Source of the DNA: Flavobacterium sp. TAB 87 | Lineage (GTDB): Bacteria > Bacteroidota > Bacteroidia > Flavobacteriales > Flavobacteriaceae | Length of the DNA stretch: 64,000 nucleotides | Direction: 5' to 3' | Assembly: GCF_001529295.1 (NCBI RefSeq) | Contig: NZ_LLWK01000037.1 | Coordinates: 124,001-188,000, forward strand | Shown: piece by piece, positions 26,198 to 42,661 of the stretch | Layout: every line of letters starts with the position of its first letter | Position numbering within the stretch: the stretch's first letter is position 1 | Made by a program: the position numbers and the translations under genes | Notes under the pieces: generated by a model | The model's input: only the letters and a program-made list of their open reading frames with translations | Told to the model about the DNA's origin: nothing | Databases searched by the model: none

Positions 26198-27670
26198 TTA
26201 TCTTGAATAATTCGGAGCTTCTTTGGTAATTGTCACATTGTGCGGATGACTTTCGTTGATTCCGCTTGCGGTGATGCGTACAAAACGACCAGTTTCTTGC
26301 AAAGTTGCAATGTCTTTTGAACCACAATATCCCATTCCAGCACGAAGACCTCCAATAAACTGAAGCATACTTTCGTACAATTCGCCTTTGTAAGGAACAC
26401 GCCCAACAATTCCTTCTGGAACTAATTTTTTTACATCGTCTTCAACATCTTGAAAATAACGGTCTTTTGAGCCACCTTCCATCGCTTCAACAGAACCCAT
26501 TCCTCTGTACGATTTGAATTTTCTTCCTTCAAAAATAATAGTTTCTCCAGGTGATTCCATCGTTCCTGCTAATAAAGAACCTAACATTACACAATCCGCT
26601 CCTGCAGCAATTGCCTTAGGAATGTCTCCTGTATACCGAATTCCACCATCAGCAATAACGGGAATACCAGAACCTTTTAATGCCGCAGCTACCTCTAAAA
26701 CAGCCGAAAACTGTGGAAAACCTACCCCTGCAACTATACGAGTAGTACAAATAGAACCAGGACCGATACCTACTTTTACACCATCAGCGCCATTTGCTAC
26801 TAAAAACTTAGCCGCTTCGGGAGTTGCAATATTACCTACAATAACATCAATAGATGGAAATCTTGCTTTTACTTCTTTCAATACTTTTACAACACCTTCT
26901 GTATGACCGTGAGCCGTATCAATAATAACTGCATCTACTCCGGCATTTACCAAAGCTTCTGCTCTTTGTACCGCATCGCCCGTTACTCCAATTGCCGCAG
27001 CTACGCGCAAACGTCCGTACACATCTTTATTTGCAATTGGTTTTTGAGTCAATTTGGTAATATCTCTAAATGTAATTAAACCTACCAATTCGTTAGCAGC
27101 ATTAATTACAGGAAGTTTTTCTATCTTGTGTCCTTGCAATACAATCTCAGCTTCTGCTAGAGAAGTTCCTTCGGCCACAGTAACTAAATTTTCGGTTGTC
27201 ATTACTTCCGTAATTGCTCTTGATCCGTTTTTCTCGAAACGCAAATCACGATTAGTCACAATTCCTTTCAAAATTCTATTTTCATCTACAATCGGAATTC
27301 CACCAATACCATATTCTTTCATGGCATTTTTTGCATCGGCAACTGTAGAAGTTAACGGTAATGTTACTGGATCGATGATCATCCCTGATTCGGCACGTTT
27401 TACTCTGCGAACTTTAGCAGCTTGCTGCTCGATCGACATATTTTTATGTAAAACACCAATTCCTCCTTCTTGCGCCATAGCAATTGCCATAGAACTTTCG
27501 GTAACGGTATCCATAGCAGCAGATACTATAGGAACGTTTAAAGTGATGTTTTTAGAAAATCTTGATTGTATACTTACTTCGCGAGGAAGCACATTGGAAT
27601 AGTTTGGTACTAATAATACATCGTCGTAAGTAAGTCCTTCTCCGATAATTTTTGTGGTGTGTGCTATCAT
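26198..27670 (-). CDS. guaB: Inosine-5'-monophosphate dehydrogenase GuaB
   Basis: A 490-residue IMPDH of normal length. [20 protein letters not shown] opens the barrel, two CBS domains occupy about residues 95-210 ([31 protein letters not shown]), and [20 protein letters not shown] holds the catalytic Cys. [15 protein letters not shown] and [19 protein letters not shown] (flap) follow. It oxidises IMP to XMP with NAD+, the committed step to GMP. Long reading frames on the opposite strand are shadows. A -7 box lies 27 bases upstream of the ATG. Confidence 0.96.
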
Positions 27671-27704: not shown

Positions 27705-27813
27705 CAGAATAAATTAAAAACTTATGTCTTTTTGACCTTATAATTTCAGATTTCGAAATAGCAGCTGGCCCAGAATTACATTTAAAAAAGATTTAAAAAA
27801 CACATAATCCTTA

Positions 27814-27877
27814 GGCCGGATAGTAGCGGCATCCTGTTGTGCCGTGGTTCGGCACAACAGATACAGCGGAGAGCCGG
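27814..27877. repeat. Structured intergenic element with an 11-bp perfect hairpin
   Basis: A GC-rich 64-bp island in AT-rich DNA between the DUF5723 gene end and guaB. CTGTTGTGCCG (27834-27844) pairs perfectly with CGGCACAACAG (27850-27860) around a 5-base loop. Flanks contain CCGG and AGCGG on both sides. It resembles the REP-like elements I know from Flavobacterium intergenic regions, which start near CCGGATAG and end near AGCGGAGAGCCGG, but that similarity is from memory. Confidence 0.55.
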
Positions 27878-27885
27878 AAAAGCTT

Positions 27886-29283
27886 CTAATCGTGAAAATT
27901 ATTCTTCTGAGGAATAACATAATTGAGGCCGAATTGAAAAGAAAGACTGTTGGCCTTGGATACATCTCGGTATTCCAGAATATTATCGACTAAGGTATAG
28001 ATATTCATTCTTCCCAAATTTGCAGAAACACCCAAACCAATATTTGTATACGAAAAACTATCGACGGTGTAGGCTGTTTTAAAGTATAATTGATTAAAAA
28101 ACACCCGTTGGTAAAAAGCTGTTAGGGCGACAAATGGCGTTTTAGGCATACTCATAGCAAAGAATTGCAAACCAAATGCATTTTGATATGCGGCGGTTGC
28201 TACATCGCAATTACAACTTTCAGACCTTGGTTTACCGAAAGAATATTGCGCCGATGCATTGAATTTTACGGGTCTCCACGTGGTAAATTTATTATAAACT
28301 GTATCTCTTGGAATAGCAGTTTCGAAAGAATCAAAAACGTCTTCGGGTTCCTCTGGATTACTAAAATCAGGGTTTACTCCGTCGTATTTATAATAACCTT
28401 TGTATGTATAAGTAGCGATGTCTTTGCTGTGTCTTACAAAACCTAGATCGAGTACGCTTGCGGTAAGTTGCCACTCTTTTTTAGGATAATAGGTCAATCC
28501 TAAATCAAAACCTAAACCTAAATTTCCGTTAAAGAAGGTATTTCTCGCAATATCATTCCCAATATTTCCTTCGTATTCGTCTTCTAGATATTTAGAAACA
28601 CCTGAAGTTTGCACTTGCAAATTAGAAGAAATAATTTGATTGTAAATAGCATTTTTATTTTGATCTGTTGTACTAATATAACCTGAATTGTCGGTAGAAT
28701 TTACGGTAAAACCACTGGAGTACAATTTGGCTCGAGCCCCGAGAACTACCTTATCGTTAAAATTTTTACGATAGCCTATATGCCAAACAGAAAGCATCTC
28801 TGATTTGAAATTGATATCGTCTAAATTGAATGATTTACCAATGTAATTTTGATTGCCTTCTAAGGCCAATACCGCGGGATCTTTAGGCACGTAACTTAGA
28901 GCATTAAACTCTTGATACAATCCAAAGGACAAGTAGCTGTTACTTTCCCAATCGCCCAGTTTGATTCCACCACTAAATATTTCAATTTGTTCTTGAATCA
29001 TGATTTTATCTTTGGCCGACGCCGAGGCAATTACTAGTCGAAGTTTATCGTTAAAATCGACATTGTTTTTAGCAAACAAATCGTAGGCCGAAATACCATT
29101 AGACCCAAATTGTACCGACAGGCCAGAAAGCAGCGGAACGCCAACATACCACTCGTACTGCACGTCGGAACCTGGGTTTGCAAGTAAATTTTGCGGAATT
29201 CCTGCAAAGTTATACAACAACTGTTTGTTTTGCGCTTGACTGCAAAACACGCTAAAAATTAATAATAGGAATATCTTTTTCAT
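27886..29283 (-). CDS. DUF5723 outer-membrane beta-barrel protein
   Basis: A 465-residue exported protein. MKKIFLLLIFSVFCSQAQ is a signal peptide. The rest is a series of amphipathic strands with aromatic ends typical of a FadL/PorP-like outer-membrane barrel, for example SYLSFGLYQEFNALSYVP, VWHIGYRKNFNDKVVLG and ANLGRMNIYTLVDNIL. A Cys-containing loop SESCNCDVA lies near residue 357. The layout fits DUF5723 proteins of Bacteroidetes, of unknown function. The gene overlaps the upstream lipoprotein gene by 4 bases, and the two are probably co-expressed and may interact. Confidence 0.82.
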   Translation of the reverse strand: MKKIFLLLIFSVFCSQAQNKQLLYNFAGIPQNLLANPGSDVQYEWYVGVPLLSGLSVQFGSNGISAYDLFAKNNVDFNDKLRLVIASASAKDKIMIQEQIEIFSGGIKLGDWESNSYLSFGLYQEFNALSYVPKDPAVLALEGNQNYIGKSFNLDDINFKSEMLSVWHIGYRKNFNDKVVLGARAKLYSSGFTVNSTDNSGYISTTDQNKNAIYNQIISSNLQVQTSGVSKYLEDEYEGNIGNDIARNTFFNGNLGLGFDLGLTYYPKKEWQLTASVLDLGFVRHSKDIATYTYKGYYKYDGVNPDFSNPEEPEDVFDSFETAIPRDTVYNKFTTWRPVKFNASAQYSFGKPRSESCNCDVATAAYQNAFGLQFFAMSMPKTPFVALTAFYQRVFFNQLYFKTAYTVDSFSYTNIGLGVSANLGRMNIYTLVDNILEYRDVSKANSLSFQFGLNYVIPQKNNFHD

Positions 29284-36197: not shown

Positions 36198-37154
36198 TTA
36201 CTTTAATATGCTCGCTATCAACTGCAATTCTTCTGTAGAAAAAGCAGTATTTTTTAAACTATCAATATTATCGTTTAATTGGCCCACAGAACTTGCTCCA
36301 ATTAAAACCGAAGTCACTCGCTTGTCTTTAAGCAACCACGCCAACGCCATTTGTGCTAACGATTGATTTCTGCTTTTTGCAATTTCATTAAGTTGAACAA
36401 TTTTCTGAATTCGCTCGGGAGTCAGCTCATTTTCTTGTAAATGTCCGTTTGGATTGTGTGCTCGCGAATCTTCTGGAATTCCGTTTAAGTATTTATTCGT
36501 TAACAGTCCCTGTGCCAAAGGTGAAAAGGCAATACAGCCAACTCCATTTTCTCCTAAAACATCCAACAAACCTTCTTCGGGTTCTCGAACAAACATCGAA
36601 TACTTGACTTGATGAATCAAGCAAGGCGTTCCTAGTTCTTTTAAAATCGCCACTGCTTTTTGCGTTTGTTCTGGATCGTAATTAGAAATTCCTGCATACA
36701 ATGCTTTTCCGCTTCGAACAGCAGAATCTAAAGCGCCCATTGTTTCTTCTAGCGGTGTTTCGGGATCAAAACGATGCGAGTAAAAAACATCCACATAATC
36801 AAGCTGCATACGCTTTAAACTCTGATCTAAACTAGACAATAAATATTTACGCGAACCCCAATCTCCATAAGGTCCGTCCCACATGGTATAGCCCGCTTTG
36901 GTCGAAATAACAATTTGATCGCGACGGTCTCCTTGAAAATTATTCTTCAGTATTTTTCCAAAATTAGTCTCTGCAGAACCTGGAACCGGTCCATAATTAT
37001 TGGCTAAGTCGAAATGTGTAATTCCTTTGTCGAAAGCTTCGTTTACAATTCGTTCGCCATTTTCAAAAACATCTACAGAACCGAAATTATGCCACAATCC
37101 TAACGAAATTTCAGGCAATAGCAAACCGCTTTTTCCACATCTATTGTATTTCAT
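36198..37154 (-). CDS. Aldo/keto reductase, YghZ/GAP-reductase-like
   Basis: A 318-residue NADPH-dependent TIM barrel. The catalytic tetrad is visible: D49 and Y54 in HFDLANNYGPVPGSAETNFG, K in VISTKAGY (near 86) and H in FYSHRFDPETPLEE (near 125). IGASSVGQLNDNI near the C-terminus binds the adenosine phosphate. The WDGPYGDWGSRKYLLSSLDQ segment is that of the YghZ/GpR subgroup, which reduces L-glyceraldehyde 3-phosphate or methylglyoxal and resembles Kv-beta subunits. It stands alone on the minus strand with no obvious operon partner. Confidence 0.88.
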   Translation of the reverse strand: MKYNRCGKSGLLLPEISLGLWHNFGSVDVFENGERIVNEAFDKGITHFDLANNYGPVPGSAETNFGKILKNNFQGDRRDQIVISTKAGYTMWDGPYGDWGSRKYLLSSLDQSLKRMQLDYVDVFYSHRFDPETPLEETMGALDSAVRSGKALYAGISNYDPEQTQKAVAILKELGTPCLIHQVKYSMFVREPEEGLLDVLGENGVGCIAFSPLAQGLLTNKYLNGIPEDSRAHNPNGHLQENELTPERIQKIVQLNEIAKSRNQSLAQMALAWLLKDKRVTSVLIGASSVGQLNDNIDSLKNTAFSTEELQLIASILK

Positions 37155-37185
37155 TGTATAAATTTAAAGTATAAAAAATAGGAAA

Positions 37186-37203
37186 CACGAATTTCACGAA
37201 TTT
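37186..37203. repeat. Tandem 9-bp repeat CACGAATTT x2
   Basis: Two exact adjacent copies of CACGAATTT in the gap before the NUDIX gene. CACGAATT runs are common in Flavobacterium intergenic DNA, so this may be a remnant of a larger repeat family. Confidence 0.4.
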
Positions 37204-37393
37204 ATGCGGATTAATTGGTACCGATCATAAAAAATTAATTTCTTTTTAATATCTAATTATTCAGTTTTTTGATATTTTTTACTTTACTATATATCTAACC
37301 ACACTAGCATATGTTATTCTTAATACAATAATTTACATTTCAGAAATAATATTATTTCAACAAATAAAACTCTAAGTTTATAAAAAATAAAAA

Positions 37394-37780
37394 ATGATTA
37401 ATGTTACTTGTGCCATAATTTTTTTTAATTCCAAAGTCCTAGTAACTCAAAGAAGTGAAAAAATGAAATTACCTCTCAAATGGGAATTTCCAGGCGGAAA
37501 ATTGGAAGATAATGAGAGTGAAGAAGAATGTATCAGAAGAGAAATTAAAGAGGAAATTAATATCGAAATTGAAGTTATAAAAAAGCTTACTTCTAGTGTC
37601 TACGATCACGGAACATTTAAAATTAATTTGATCCCATTTATCGCTAATTATATTTCTGGCACTATTAAATTAGAAGAGCACACAGATTTTAAATTACTAG
37701 AACTATCTGAGTTAAGACCGTTAGATTGGGCTGCAGCTGATTTGCCAATTGTTGAAGAACTTATAAAAATACAACTATGA
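37394..37780 (+). CDS. MutT-like NUDIX pyrophosphohydrolase
   Basis: A 128-residue MutT-type enzyme consisting only of the NUDIX fold. GGKLEDNESEEECIRREIKE, with the box at residues 35-57, matches G-x5-E-x7-RE-U-x-EE; its second glycine is Asn (EEINI). VTQRSEKMKLPLKWEFPGG is the substrate strand and LDWAAADLPIVEELI the MutT C-terminus. It would hydrolyse a (deoxy)nucleoside triphosphate to monophosphate and pyrophosphate, as in 8-oxo-dGTP or CTP pyrophosphohydrolases. Its last four bases overlap the start of the giant helicase gene, so the two are coupled. That link suggests a role in the helicase pathway rather than general housekeeping. Confidence 0.88.
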   Translation: MINVTCAIIFFNSKVLVTQRSEKMKLPLKWEFPGGKLEDNESEEECIRREIKEEINIEIEVIKKLTSSVYDHGTFKINLIPFIANYISGTIKLEEHTDFKLLELSELRPLDWAAADLPIVEELIKIQL

Positions 37781-40700
37781 ATCAAGGTTTATATGAAGAG
37801 TTGATAACTAAACTCGTAAATTTAAAGTTAAGCGAATTAGATAAAGATACTTTTCAGATTAAAACAACTTCGATTGATAAAGCGGAAGCAGCAAAAATAC
37901 TGTCGGATCATTTAAGTAAAATAATCCGTCATGCCTTTAATTTAGTGAAGGGAGATAATATTTTAGAAAATCAGATTGAAATTGCTAACAAAATCATTTT
38001 ATTTTTAAAAGTTGAACTAAGCAATGAGAATTTTGAGAATGATTTAATTGATACTGAAGGTAAAATTCTTAAAGCAGTTTTTACTAAAGTAGACGCTCAT
38101 TTTATAGATTTAGATCTACATCTTAAAGAAATAACACCTTACACAAGACTAATTCATAGCGAGCTTTTTACTGGAGGAAATTCTGGAACCACTCTTGAAA
38201 GTGAATTAAGAAAAGAAATTTTATCTTCAGATAGAATTGATTTATTAGTGTCTTTTATAAAATGGAAAGGCATCAGAATATTAGAAAAAGAACTTAGAGA
38301 GTTTACCAGTAGAGGTGGAAAATTAAGAGTTATAACAACAACTTATATTGGAGCGACTGATGCAAAAGCAGTTGAAATTTTAGCTACTTTAGAAAATACC
38401 GAAGTTAAAATTTCTTATAATACCGGAAATGAAAGACTTCATGCAAAAGCGTACTTATTTGAAAGAAATACAGGTTTTCATACTGGATATATTGGTTCAT
38501 CCAATTTTTCTCGTTCTGCATTAACTGATGGTTTAGAATGGAATATGAAAGTTACGACCAAGGAGGTTGGGCATGTGATTGATAAATTCAAAAAAACCTT
38601 TGAAGCTTACTGGCAGAATTCAGATTTCGAATTATACGATATAGAGAAGCACCGCGACAAGTTGATAACATCGTTAAAAGAGGGGAGATTTTCAAAAGAG
38701 TACATACCAAATACAAATTATTTCGATTTAAAGCCTTTTCATTACCAACAAGAAATTTTAGAAAAGCTTGAAGTAGAACGAACAATTCACAATAGCTACA
38801 AAAATCTGATTGTAGCTGCTACTGGAACAGGAAAGACGGTTATTTCGGCATTTGATTATAAAAATTTTAGAACAAAAAACAAATCATCGCGACTGCTTTT
38901 TGTAGCGCATAGGAAAGAGATACTTCAACAGGCATTAGCTACATTTCAAGGCGTTTTAAAAGATAATAATTTTGGTGAATTGTGGGTTGATGGAATTGAA
39001 CCAAAAAGTAATGAGTATTTATTTGCATCCGTTCAAACATTAAATAACAGATTAAAAAGCATTCAATTATCGCCTGATTATTTCGATTTTATAATAATCG
39101 ACGAAGTACATCACATCGAAGCTAAAACATATCGACCAATTTTAGAATTCTTTACTCCAAAAGTATTAGTTGGCTTGACAGCTACCCCCGAACGCATGGA
39201 CGGCGCAGATATTTTGAAGGACTTTAGTAATAGAATTGCTGCTGAAATTAGATTACCAGAAGCTTTGAATAAAAAAATATTAAGCCCATTTCAATATTTT
39301 GGAATTACAGATAGTATCGATTTAACGAATGTAAAATGGCAAAATGGTAAATATGCTCCAAGTGAGTTAACCAATTTGTATACACAAAGTGATAGACGTG
39401 TTAGAGAGATAATTTCAAATCTTCAAAAATATTTAACCGATATTAATGAAGTTCGGGCCATCGGTTTTTGTGTGTCCATTGAGCATGCAAAATTTATGGC
39501 TGATAAATTTTCTTTAGCAGGTTTTAGAGCATCATATTTAACAAATGAAAATAGCAAGGAAAGAGAAACTATTAGAAAGCAGTTAAAAAACCAAGAAATC
39601 AACTACTTATTTGTTGTGGACATTTTTAATGAAGGTGTTGATATTCCAGAAATTGACACTGTTTTATTTCTTAGACCCACAGAGAGCTTGACTGTATTTC
39701 TACAACAATTAGGTCGTGGACTAAGATTATCCGAAGGAAAAGATTGTTTAACTGTTTTAGATTTTGTTGGGAATGCACGACCAGAATATGATTTTGAAAA
39801 TAAGTTTCGATCTTTAATTGGAAAAACAACTACTTCCGTTTACAAAGAGACTGAAAATGATTTTCCTCATTTACCACTAGGTTGTTCTATTATTTTAGAG
39901 AAAAAAACTAAGGAAACTATTCTCGAAAACATTAAGAGAGCAGTGTCTCTAAATGTTAATCAATTGATTGCAAAAATTACTAATTATAAACATCAAACAA
40001 CATTACCGTTAACTCTAAATAATTTCATGAAATTAAATCTAATTTCGTTAGAATCTATTTACAAGAAAGACAATTGGTCACGTCTATGTCAGCGAGCAGG
40101 AGTTATTGATGATTTTGATATTTTAAATGAAAAGCAAATTTATTCCGCAATAAAGAATAAATGGTTCTCCACTACTTCTCTAAGCTATTTTGAATTTATT
40201 CTAAAGATTGCAAAGAATGACTTCAAAATCAACGTAAAAGATTTTTCAGAAAATGAATTGTCAATGCTTTTAATGCTGCATTATGATGTTTGGCAAAATG
40301 CTGGTGGATTCAATTCTTTGCAAGAAAGCATTATGCAAATTGGTGGAAATAAAATTTTGGTAAACGAAATTATTGAAGTTCTAGAAATTTTGATAGACAG
40401 AATTGATTTTAAAGAAGTTGAGATAAATCTACCGTTTAATCAACCATTAAAAGTGCATGCTCGCTACACAAGAGATCAAATTTTGGCAGCATTTCAGTTA
40501 AGTACATTTGCGAAAAAGTCTTCAAATAGAGAAGGTGCTGCGGAAAATAAAAAGCTAAATACAGAAATTCTTTTTATTAATTTAATAAAATCGGAAGAAG
40601 ACTTTTCTCCAACAACAATGTATGATGATTACGCAATAAGCGAAACTCTTTTCCATTGGCAATCTCATAATGCATACGGGCCAGACACGGCTAAAGGGTT

Positions 40701-40917
40701 ATCTTATGTGAATCATTTGAAAAACAATAAAAATATATTACTTTTCATTAGAGAAAAAGCAAGTGATGAAAATGGAAATACTTTTGGTTATGTTTTCATC
40801 GGTGAAGCTTACTTCATAGAATCTGAAGGTTCGAAACCGATGAACATTAAATGGGAATTAAATGAACCTATACCAAATTATCTCTGGAAAGAATCAGCAA
40901 AAATGTCAGTAGGTTAA
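37777..40917 (+). CDS. PLD-like nuclease / SF2 helicase / DUF3427 protein
   Basis: A 1046-residue three-part protein. The N-terminal region ends in a phospholipase D-type nuclease: LHAKAYLFERNTGFHTGYIG, with H222 and K224, then SSNFSRSAL. The SF2 helicase core has Walker A ATGTGKT at 348-354, DEVHH at 442-446, LTATPERMD at 467-475 and motif VI QQLGRGLRL near 645. DUF3427 fills the last 330 residues, with FSPTTMYDDYAISETLFHWQ near 950. The arrangement is full length and intact. Proteins of this type have the look of nucleic-acid-targeting defence or repair enzymes. Coupling to the NUDIX gene is by a 4-base overlap. The substrate is unknown. Confidence 0.9.
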   Translation: MNQGLYEELITKLVNLKLSELDKDTFQIKTTSIDKAEAAKILSDHLSKIIRHAFNLVKGDNILENQIEIANKIILFLKVELSNENFENDLIDTEGKILKAVFTKVDAHFIDLDLHLKEITPYTRLIHSELFTGGNSGTTLESELRKEILSSDRIDLLVSFIKWKGIRILEKELREFTSRGGKLRVITTTYIGATDAKAVEILATLENTEVKISYNTGNERLHAKAYLFERNTGFHTGYIGSSNFSRSALTDGLEWNMKVTTKEVGHVIDKFKKTFEAYWQNSDFELYDIEKHRDKLITSLKEGRFSKEYIPNTNYFDLKPFHYQQEILEKLEVERTIHNSYKNLIVAATGTGKTVISAFDYKNFRTKNKSSRLLFVAHRKEILQQALATFQGVLKDNNFGELWVDGIEPKSNEYLFASVQTLNNRLKSIQLSPDYFDFIIIDEVHHIEAKTYRPILEFFTPKVLVGLTATPERMDGADILKDFSNRIAAEIRLPEALNKKILSPFQYFGITDSIDLTNVKWQNGKYAPSELTNLYTQSDRRVREIISNLQKYLTDINEVRAIGFCVSIEHAKFMADKFSLAGFRASYLTNENSKERETIRKQLKNQEINYLFVVDIFNEGVDIPEIDTVLFLRPTESLTVFLQQLGRGLRLSEGKDCLTVLDFVGNARPEYDFENKFRSLIGKTTTSVYKETENDFPHLPLGCSIILEKKTKETILENIKRAVSLNVNQLIAKITNYKHQTTLPLTLNNFMKLNLISLESIYKKDNWSRLCQRAGVIDDFDILNEKQIYSAIKNKWFSTTSLSYFEFILKIAKNDFKINVKDFSENELSMLLMLHYDVWQNAGGFNSLQESIMQIGGNKILVNEIIEVLEILIDRIDFKEVEINLPFNQPLKVHARYTRDQILAAFQLSTFAKKSSNREGAAENKKLNTEILFINLIKSEEDFSPTTMYDDYAISETLFHWQSHNAYGPDTAKGLSYVNHLKNNKNILLFIREKASDENGNTFGYVFIGEAYFIESEGSKPMNIKWELNEPIPNYLWKESAKMSVG

Positions 40918-41093
40918 CTGTAGTGTAATCTGCTACAGAAAAGCATACTATTTGGACTCTAATTCCGTTGACACAATTTAAACTACTGCAATAGACACGG
41001 GTTCTTACTTTTATATTTACCAGATTTCTCACAATTTAACAGCAAAAAATAGCAGCAAAAAATAAAGTGTCTTGAAAACTTTACAACATAAAA

Positions 41094-41114
41094 AAACCAC
41101 CAAAAAGGTGGTTT
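41094..41114. terminator. Terminator hairpin between the helicase and carboxylase genes
   Basis: AAACCACC pairs with GGTGGTTT around five A, with A and T runs outside. It lies just past the convergent minus-strand carboxylase gene. Confidence 0.7.
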
Positions 41115-41119
41115 AATTT

Positions 41120-42661
41120 TTATAAGGGAATATTGCCGTGTTTTCGTTTTGGTAAAACGCTTTCTTTATTTTCGAGCATCGCAAAGCCTTTAAGTAATTT
41201 TCGTCTAGTATCTTGCGGTAAAATAACCTCATCGACAAAACCACGTTGCGCTGCAGTATACGGATTGGCAAACAAATTGGCGTATTCTGTTTCTTTTTCT
41301 GCTAATTTTTCAGCTGGATTTTCTGCTTCTTGAATTTCTTTTTTAAAGATAATTTCGCTTGCGCCTTTGGCTCCCATAACGGCAATTTCGGCACTTGGCC
41401 ATGCAAAATTCATGTCGGCTCCAATGTGCTTAGAATTCATCACATCGTACGCACCACCATAGGCCTTTCTTGTAATAACTGTAATTCTAGGTACTGTCGC
41501 CTCGCTTAAAGCGTACAATAATTTGGCTCCATGCACGATAATTCCGTTCCATTCTTGATCTGTTCCAGGTAAAAATCCGGGTACATCGACCAAAACCAAA
41601 AGCGGAATATTAAAGCAATCGCAAAAGCGTGTAAAGCGTGCTGCTTTTTTAGAGCTGTTTACATCCAAAACTCCCGCTAAATACAACGGTTGGTTTGCAA
41701 TAATTCCGATACTTCTTCCACCTAAACGAGCAAAACCAACAATAATGTTTTCGGCATAATTTTTATGAATTTCAAAAAAGGAATCCTCGTCGATAATTCC
41801 TGTAATTACCGCATGCATATCATACGGTTTATTGGGACTATCTGGAATAATGGTATCTAACGCTTCTCGAATTTCATCGTGTAAAGTGTACGAAAGCTTT
41901 TGTGCCGTTTCGCGATTGTTTTGTGGCAAATAGCTCAAGAGTTTCTTTAAATCTTCCAAACATTCAACATCGTTGGCCGAGGTGCAATGCGCCACTCCCG
42001 ATTTGGTTGAATGTGTGCTTGCTCCTCCTAACTCCTCAGAAGTTACGGTTTCGTTAGTCACTGTTTTAACCACATTCGGTCCGGTAACAAACATATAACT
42101 TGTTCCTTCGACCATCATGGTAAAATCGGTCATGGCTGGCGAATACACCGCACCACCGGCACAAGGCCCCATAATGGCCGAAATTTGAGGAATTACTCCG
42201 CTCGACTGTACATTTCGGAAAAAGATGTCAGCGTAACCACCAAGAGAGCGAACTCCTTCTTGAATTCGAGCACCTCCAGAATCGTTTAAACCAATCATTG
42301 GTGCTCCCATTTTGACCGCCATATCCATTACTTTGCAAATTTTCTCTGCATGAGTTTCCGACAATGCTCCTCCAAAAACCGTGAAATCTTGGGCAAAAAG
42401 ATATACCAATCTTCCATTAATGGTTCCGTAACCTGTAATTACACCATCTCCATAATAGAGCTCCTTTTCCATTCCGAAATCAGTGGTTCGGTGCGTAACC
42501 AGCATTCCGATTTCTTCAAAAGAACCTTCATCCAATAAATAATGCACTCTTTCGCGAGCCGTTAATTTTTTCTTTTCGTGCTGTTTTTCGATTCTTTTTA
42601 AACTGCCGCCAAGTTGCGCTAGTTCAATTTTATCGTTTAATATTTTTATTTTCGATTTCAT
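41120..42661 (-). CDS. Acyl-CoA carboxylase beta (carboxyltransferase) subunit, propionyl-CoA type
   Basis: A 513-residue carboxyltransferase of the PCCB/MmdA family. [20 protein letters not shown] near residues 124-143 and [20 protein letters not shown] near 165 form the first acyl-CoA site, and [20 protein letters not shown] near 361 and [20 protein letters not shown] near 395 the carboxybiotin site. Length is normal for decarboxylase/PCC beta. With the two genes upstream it makes a three-subunit carboxylase that adds CO2 to propionyl-CoA (perhaps acetyl-CoA) via biotin. Acting as methylmalonyl-CoA decarboxylase is less likely, since a biotin carboxylase is encoded next to it. Confidence 0.9.

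What the first reader, a model, noticed from the sequence alone, without database searches (positions are those of the whole stretch)
37394..40917. Two-gene NUDIX + PLD-nuclease/SF2-helicase/DUF3427 module, candidate defence system
A MutT-like hydrolase overlaps by 4 bases with a 1046-residue protein that joins a PLD-type nuclease (H222, K224), an SF2 helicase (Walker A 348-354, DEVHH 442-446) and DUF3427. The module is AT-rich, preceded by a 239-bp non-coding gap with a tandem CACGAATTT repeat, and interrupts otherwise ordinary housekeeping genes. Nuclease-helicase fusions of this type occur in bacterial immunity and DNA-processing loci; the coupled nucleotide hydrolase hints at a combined nucleic-acid cleavage and nucleotide-pool function. 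I infer an antiphage role; it is not shown by the sequence.
Basis: partly seen in the sequence, partly recalled or inferred. Interest (0 to 1): 0.78.

Follow-up and report, generated by a model that had tools for sequence, protein, structure and literature searches.

The report
Modified-DNA restriction enzyme with nucleotide-cleaning partner
This gene pair encodes a relative of an enzyme that cuts foreign DNA carrying modified cytosine, together with a small enzyme whose relatives destroy the free building blocks of those same modified bases, which may be how such cells avoid cutting their own DNA.

Summary
The two genes are real and as described. The large protein is a relative of SauUSI, the 5-methylcytosine/5-hydroxymethylcytosine-dependent Type IV restriction enzyme (best match by sequence and fold, PDB 7clg). 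'Defence' is therefore likely, but the nuclease-helicase is a known kind. The pair is accessory: two relatives have the flanking genes side by side with nothing between.

The stronger result is the partner. A NUDIX gene lies directly beside 66 of 80 sampled SauUSI-type genes of bacteria and archaea, in three gene orders, and beside SauUSI itself in Staphylococcus. Trees suggest two partner exchanges. The NUDIX's best structural match, B. fragilis 3GWY, groups with linked NUDIX proteins; [quoted passage not shown]

Best explanation (inferred): the NUDIX keeps these precursors out of host DNA, so the nuclease spares self. Rival: it starves phages of 5-hydroxymethyl-dCTP. One figure legend (Streptococcus) notes the adjacency; I found no interpretation.

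Against: two Flavobacterium genomes have the large gene without such a NUDIX; 18 of 43 relatives in the window's own subfamily lack it; the methyl-contacting Tyr is Ala921 here.

The parts
37394..37780 (+). NUDIX hydrolase gene (128 aa); probable hydrolase of 5-substituted dCTP
   Evidence: Pfam NUDIX; PADLOC PDC-S07 2.5e-47; fold match 3gwy; Asp116 as in NudG and 3GWY
37777..40917 (+). SauUSI-type Type IV restriction enzyme gene (1046 aa): N-terminal extension, PLD nuclease, SF2 ATPase, coupler, SRA-like/DUF3427 end
   Evidence: PADLOC mREase_IV 4.3e-243; PDB 7clg 2.3e-81; fold match 7clg
37777..37780 (+). ATGA overlap: start of the large gene within the stop of the NUDIX gene
37155..37393 (.). 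239-bp AT-rich gap upstream, presumably holding the promoter (inferred), with tandem CACGAATTT at 37186-37203
37160..41119 (.). extra stretch relative to the empty site in relatives (approximate limits)
   Evidence: BLAST of window 36901-41400 against G070 and G010

Best explanation
A two-gene Type IV restriction module. The 1046-residue protein is a SauUSI-type enzyme: its C-terminal SRA-like domain flips out a modified cytosine, the SF2 ATPase moves along DNA, and the PLD nuclease cuts. [quoted passage not shown] Shown by computation: family, linkage, conserved residues, mobility. Inferred: the activity of these two proteins, and self-protection as the purpose.
For: Large protein: mREase_IV 4.3e-243; 7clg SauUSI 2.3e-81, the only match over most of its length; top by fold, TM 0.77-0.78 on the target, E 2.2e-49 and 1.8e-46, next RadD 5.1e-18. 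Linkage: NUDIX adjacent in 66 of 80 genome loci (40 upstream tandem, 19 downstream tandem, 7 convergent); 78 of 93 rows of the classical SauUSI clade, and at least 20 changes of arrangement or presence on the whole 139-row tree; 0 of 12 other-helicase control loci. S. aureus: one base lies between the NUDIX stop and the SauUSI start; that NUDIX is PDB 5x1x, 100%. Partner exchange: G100's large protein is 88.6% identical to G007's, but its NUDIX is 75% identical to the partner of a classical SauUSI-type gene (L147) and 40% to the window's. Substrate: 3GWY is the best fold match and falls in a clade of linked NUDIX; kcat/Km 4.8e6 for 5-Me-dCTP and 4.4e6 for 5-MeOH-dCTP (PMC5158307, passages). 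Asp116 in 95 of 98 linked rows. Own genome: no PF00145 m5C methylase; in the genus 2 of 18 carriers have one against 69 of 103 others, p=1.0e-5, or 3 of 18, p=1.1e-4, if a sub-threshold match in G038 is counted.
Against: G062 and G089 carry the large gene with no NUDIX beside it and no NUDIX of this type elsewhere at E 1e-8. In the N-extended clade, to which the window belongs, 18 of 43 rows have no adjacent NUDIX and 5 could not be judged. Across the phylum carriers do not avoid m5C methylases: 16 of 41 against 159 of 354, p=0.51, so the genus signal may be lineage. The methyl-contacting Tyr of SauUSI is Ala921. The window NUDIX lies in a clade with nine stand-alone NUDIX genes, separate from the clade of 3GWY, and is below the NudG equivalog cut-off (74.7 against 156 bits). 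10 of the 30 closest NUDIX homologues in 395 Bacteroidota genomes are not next to a SauUSI-type gene.
Confidence: 0.5

Rival explanations
1. The NUDIX is an offensive arm: it destroys the 5-hydroxymethyl-dCTP pool that hmC phages need, so that phage DNA is either modified (cut by the SauUSI-type enzyme) or unmodified (open to other restriction or to the phage's own nucleases).
For: 3GWY, the nearest assayed relative by fold, is as active on 5-hydroxymethyl-dCTP as on 5-methyl-dCTP; the linkage data fit equally.
Against: Removing the modification would hide the phage from the partner enzyme (inference). SauUSI is reported to act mainly as a barrier to m5C DNA in S. aureus (PMC7913695, title and abstract start), where no phage dCTP pool is involved.
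Confidence: 0.2
2. The NUDIX is a general housekeeping nucleotide hydrolase that hitch-hikes with the mobile restriction gene and has no joint function with it.
For: Stand-alone relatives exist: 10 of 30 closest homologues in the phylum are not linked. Many N-extended relatives and two Flavobacterium genomes manage without it.
Against: Linkage in three gene orders with at least 20 changes on the tree and partner exchange are not expected of passive linkage; in 10 Flavobacterium genomes searched, each of the 6 with strong matches (141 bits or more) has them only at the SauUSI-type locus, and the two carriers of the empty site (G010, G070) have none.
Confidence: 0.18
3. The NUDIX regulates or senses: it binds or hydrolyses a nucleotide (for instance dATP or a modified dNTP made by a phage) that controls the restriction enzyme, or acts in an abortive response.
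For: SauUSI needs ATP or dATP (PMC3874153, passages); a 2025 review suggests nucleotide-pool monitoring of 5hmdCTP as a possible phage signal (PMC12707154, passages); overlapping or touching genes could give a fixed ratio of products.
Against: The Nudix catalytic residues are invariant in 98 linked rows, pointing to catalysis; reviews say SauUSI works as a single polypeptide in vitro and in E. coli.
Confidence: 0.08

Closest known systems
SauUSI (S. aureus Type IV restriction enzyme, PDB 7clg)
   Same: PLD - SF2 ATPase - coupler - recognition-domain order, catalytic and ATPase residues, pocket Asp and Trp; a NUDIX gene directly upstream
   Different: about 100 extra N-terminal residues; Tyr831 replaced by Ala921; about 26% identity over the alignment
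B. fragilis Q5LBB1 / 3GWY, hydrolase of 5-methyl- and 5-hydroxymethyl-dCTP (PMC5158307)
   Same: top fold match, 36% identity, same catalytic residues and Asp
   Different: falls in a neighbouring clade of linked NUDIX, not in the window's own; whether its gene lies beside a SauUSI-type gene is unknown
E. coli NudG (5-methyl-dCTP hydrolase)
   Same: Nudix box, Asp at the specificity position
   Different: no restriction gene beside it in MG1655; window protein below the NudG cut-off
PADLOC PDC-S07 (candidate defence family)
   Same: window NUDIX matches at 2.5e-47
   Different: listed as a candidate on its own (meaning of the PDC-S name recalled); here it is one half of a pair

Membership tests
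SauUSI-type Type IV restriction enzyme | PLD nuclease with its His, Lys, Asn and Glu | tested here: met
   SauUSI H119, K121, N139, E150 columns identical in 139 of 139 aligned rows, window included; the last residue of the HxKx4E motif, E126, is E229 here but varies among relatives
SauUSI-type Type IV restriction enzyme | SF2 ATPase with Walker A and DExH | tested here: met
SauUSI-type Type IV restriction enzyme | C-terminal SRA-fold recognition domain with 5mC pocket | tested here: inconclusive
   whole-chain fold match to 7clg, but mean pLDDT only 65.8; Phe933, Ile934, Asp951, Trp961 kept, methyl-contact Tyr is Ala921
SauUSI-type Type IV restriction enzyme | no partner m5C methyltransferase | tested here: met
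   none among the neighbouring ORFs (by eye); no PF00145 match in the genome
SauUSI-type Type IV restriction enzyme | ATP-dependent cleavage of m5C/hm5C DNA | not testable with these tools
   needs purified protein
NudG / 5-methyl-dCTP NUDIX | intact Nudix box | tested here: met
   G35, E41, R49, E50, E53, E54 identical in 98 of 98 linked rows; the box's usual last Gly is not kept in the window protein
NudG / 5-methyl-dCTP NUDIX | Asp rather than MutT Asn at the base-contact position (role recalled) | tested here: met
   Asp116; NudG D, 3GWY D, MutT N
NudG / 5-methyl-dCTP NUDIX | NCBIfam NudG equivalog cut-off | tested here: not met
   74.7 against 156 bits: may work like NudG but is not filed as NudG
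NudG / 5-methyl-dCTP NUDIX | hydrolysis of 5-Me-dCTP / 5-hm-dCTP | not testable with these tools
   inferred from 3GWY
MutT 8-oxo-dGTPase | MutT equivalog cut-off | tested here: not met
   67.9 against 97.9 bits
MutT 8-oxo-dGTPase | Asn at the base-contact position | tested here: not met
   Asp116

The most novel reading that the evidence does not exclude
SauUSI-type Type IV restriction is commonly a two-gene system: a modification-dependent nuclease plus a dedicated hydrolase of the matching modified dNTPs. This would be a form of self-immunity that works on the nucleotide pool rather than by methylating DNA, found in bacteria and archaea and present in the prototype SauUSI locus itself.
Probability: 0.45. 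Interest if true: 0.8.

Novelty: new variant of a known kind. Interest (0 to 1): 0.6.

Why it matters
Type IV enzymes are described as needing no partner because self DNA is simply unmodified. If a partner must keep modified dNTPs out of self DNA, that is an unrecognised vulnerability and an unrecognised component: a phage that makes 5-hydroxymethyl-dCTP could turn the enzyme against its host. It would give PADLOC's candidate PDC-S07 a function, and the prediction can be tested with available nucleotides in laboratory E. coli. It also bears on expression of SauUSI-type enzymes in other hosts, which may behave differently without the partner.

Tried and rejected
New nuclease-helicase immunity protein: rejected, it is SauUSI-like. 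RadD-type DNA-repair helicase: RadD matches only the ATPase core, residues 317-671. Viral spread: no viral contig matched the six peptide patterns of the large protein; the two S. aureus 'phage' records with a NUDIX served only as sequence sources. A common alternative partner in loci without NUDIX: none seen by eye among the neighbours of 12 such loci. Avoidance of m5C methylases as proof of specificity: strong in the genus (p=1.0e-5) but absent across the phylum (p=0.51), so used only as weak support. A link between the Tyr831 column and NUDIX presence: in the N-extended clade V occurs both with (12 rows) and without NUDIX (15), A (6) and T (2) only with; Tyr is in 90 of 93 classical rows; no clean rule. 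In the 139-row alignment columns 858 and 868 look partly shifted (Asp in 122, Trp in 109 of 139), so for those I rely on the 22-row alignment. Terminal repeats of a mobile element: nothing convincing among the short repeats. Whether 3GWY's own gene neighbours a SauUSI-type gene: not reached; among the 86 genomes the only match (52%) was the NUDIX of G178, which lies directly upstream of a SauUSI-type gene. RNA and tRNA scans of the window gave one Flavo-1 RNA and no tRNA.

Rows dropped before counts: the tree left out large-protein ORFs under 800 aa, weak matches and identical copies. The padloc test used 101 of the 119 neighbour proteins (those of L042 and L043 left out); the control 101 of 102. 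The NUDIX profile was built from neighbours already found and then run on all ORFs of the loci; in the 80 genome loci one further, non-adjacent hit appeared (L211, 24 bits, 1.9 kb away). In L152 the listed 841-bp distance comes from a late start of the ORF called for the large gene; the similarity match itself starts 1 base after the NUDIX. In the phylum test I classed 41 genomes as carriers by hand and left partial or weaker matches in the rest.
Full report
What is there. Two overlapping genes, NUDIX (37394-37780) and a 1046-residue PLD-SF2-DUF3427 protein (37777-40917), share ATGA.

What the large protein is. PADLOC's mREase_IV model matches residues 119-1043 at 4.3e-243. Of 19 distinct PDB sequences found at E 1e-3, only 7clg, SauUSI, matches over most of the length (2.3e-81, residues 142-1017); the rest match the ATPase core or parts of it. 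An AlphaFold model of modest confidence (mean pLDDT 65.8) also finds 7clg first, TM 0.77-0.78 on the target; the next match is RadD at 5.1e-18. The SauUSI paper describes a PLD nuclease, SF2 ATPase, coupler and an SRA-fold recognition domain with pocket residues Tyr831, Phe841, Ile842, Asp858 and Trp868 (PMC7913695, section 25). The window keeps Phe933, Ile934, Asp951 and Trp961 but has Ala921 for Tyr831. Tyr is found in 90 of 93 classical rows; 42 of 43 N-extended rows have V, A, T, I or L, one a gap. So the window enzyme probably reads a modified cytosine, perhaps with another preference than SauUSI. Residues 1 to about 118 are an extension without a family match, modelled with low confidence as helices.

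It is accessory. Ten of the 17 other carriers have a full carboxylase match, each on another contig than the pair (for G100 the 4.9-kb contig leaves it open). In G010 and G070 the aldo/keto reductase and carboxylase genes are neighbours with about 160 bp between; window 36901-37159 and 41120-41400 align to G070 with 155 bp between them, and similarly to G010. G113 has two other ORFs there. Among 17 loci compared, some pairs share a site, but the window shares with others only one protein of 46-51% identity. Proteins within 5.5 kb of these genes hit 64 PADLOC families at 1e-15 (CBASS, Dnd, Fic and others in the 25 shown) against 2 in an equal-sized control; counted by proteins the excess is smaller, since each listed family is matched by only 1 or 2 of 101.

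The NUDIX link. In the genus, 15 of 17 SauUSI-type loci outside the window have a NUDIX directly upstream; G062 and G089 do not, and no NUDIX of this type was found elsewhere in them at E 1e-8. A scan of GTDB genomes kept the best 80 of 590 candidates: NUDIX upstream in tandem 40, downstream in tandem 19, downstream convergent 7, none 14; of the 14, L139, L159 and L174 are cut off by a contig end within 2, 216 and 341 bp. The best 80 were ranked by likeness to SauUSI, so they favour the classical type. Upstream pairs overlap or nearly touch: 26 of 40 at 5 bp or less. Linked hosts include Firmicutes, Bacteroidota, Actinobacteria, Vibrio, a spirochaete and archaea. The prototype belongs too: in S. 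aureus one base separates the NUDIX stop from the SauUSI start codon, and the NUDIX is PDB 5x1x, 100% identical. The main text of the 2021 SauUSI paper contains neither 'MutT' nor 'operon'. Twelve control loci of other helicases had no NUDIX within 1.5 kb of the match, a stretch partly taken up by the helicase gene itself. Plasmid records add cases with an annotated NUDIX (Hymenobacter canadensis, L. plantarum) and without one (Neotabrizicola, Rhodobacter, Paracoccus, Pseudoalteromonas, Hymenobacter swuensis, Peptoclostridium). Conversely, of 30 NUDIX matches of at least 133 bits in 395 Bacteroidota genomes, 20 lie next to a SauUSI-type match; nine of the other ten were read and have no SauUSI-type gene in their 1.5-kb flanks.

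On a 139-row tree (FastTree, no bootstrap) the classical clade of 93 rows has NUDIX upstream in 52, downstream in 19, convergent in 7, none in 12, unknown in 3. The N-extended clade of 43 rows, which holds the window, has 20 upstream, 18 none, 5 unknown; three far rows have none or are unknown. Arrangement or presence changed at least 20 times, presence alone at least 14. G100's large protein is 88.6% identical to that of G007, whose NUDIX is of the window type, yet G100's NUDIX is 75% identical to the partner of a classical SauUSI-type gene (L147); G017 looks like a second exchange, at 65%. Repeated re-pairing argues for function.

What the NUDIX does. A profile of 64 NUDIX sequences finds 5x1x, 3gwy and NudG (2rrk) first among PDB sequences. 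A confident model (pLDDT 96.2) finds 3gwy first; MutT2 bound to 5mdCTP (rank 6) and NudG (rank 10) follow, but also, at rank 2, an RNA pyrophosphohydrolase, BdRppH. The tree puts 3GWY in a clade with 29 SauUSI-linked NUDIX (SH-aLRT 99); the window's lies in another clade with 17 linked and nine stand-alone rows (97); the tree has few columns and only 18 of 107 inner branches starred. 3GWY (Q5LBB1) hydrolyses 5-Me-dCTP and 5-MeOH-dCTP with kcat/Km of 4.8 and 4.4 x 10^6 per M per s, 5-OH-dCTP about 50-fold less well (PMC5158307, passages). SauUSI cuts DNA with m5C and hm5C (PMC3874153, passages). The Asp shared with NudG and 3GWY is present in 95 of 98 linked rows.

Mechanism. Shown by computation: family, linkage, residues, mobility. 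Inferred: the NUDIX clears 5-substituted dCTPs so that host DNA does not acquire the mark the nuclease attacks. The own genome lacks PF00145, and carriers in the genus rarely have it (2 of 18 against 69 of 103, p=1.0e-5; 1 of 16 against 36 of 55 at 2.4-4.0 Mb), as expected of an m5C-dependent enzyme. Across the phylum there is no such avoidance (16 of 41 against 159 of 354, p=0.51), so the genus result may reflect lineage. The starvation rival uses the same chemistry for offence.

Prior art. The adjacency is not wholly new: one figure legend on Streptococcus says the small genes adjacent to SauUSI homologues are MutT homologues, without interpretation there (PMC7641849, section 11 and passages). 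PADLOC lists the NUDIX as PDC-S07, named in six papers of which I read passages of one. Searches for SauUSI with Nudix, SauUSI alone, DUF3427 with phospholipase D, type IV restriction with Nudix, 5-methyl-dCTP with Nudix or McrBC, MutT with type IV restriction, and Nudix with restriction, 5-hydroxymethyl and defence showed no functional proposal in what I read; most hits were seen as listings only, and subscription papers and the 2011 SauUSI paper were not available.

Noticed in passing
L129:2493-6128 (L. plantarum plasmid NZ_CP028230): NUDIX and SauUSI-type gene are followed by a gene annotated 'nucleotide pyrophosphohydrolase', a second possible nucleotide-pool enzyme in the same row.
   Followed up: no
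L202:1730-3118: A SauUSI-type gene without NUDIX has a protein that looks by eye like a C5-cytosine methylase, and a resolvase-like one, next to it; its specificity may differ.
   Followed up: no
L032, L036, L046 (Flavobacterium-like loci): N-extended and classical SauUSI-type genes lie between some of the same flanking genes, suggesting an integration hotspot.
   Followed up: partly
L099:4436-11437 (NZ_CP077890): This S. aureus plasmid record holds two inverted copies of the NUDIX-SauUSI region; the first SauUSI copy reads as interrupted. Possibly an assembly artefact.
   Followed up: no
window 27809-27884: Flavo-1 RNA (Rfam RF01705), 59 bits, between the ORFs 26198-27670 and 27886-29283.
   Followed up: no
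window 37777-38130: N-terminal extension (about 118 residues) shared by the N-extended SauUSI subfamily, without a family match.
   Followed up: partly
L052:372-1453: In G113 the interval between carboxylase and aldo/keto reductase holds two other ORFs, so the site takes different cargo.
   Followed up: no
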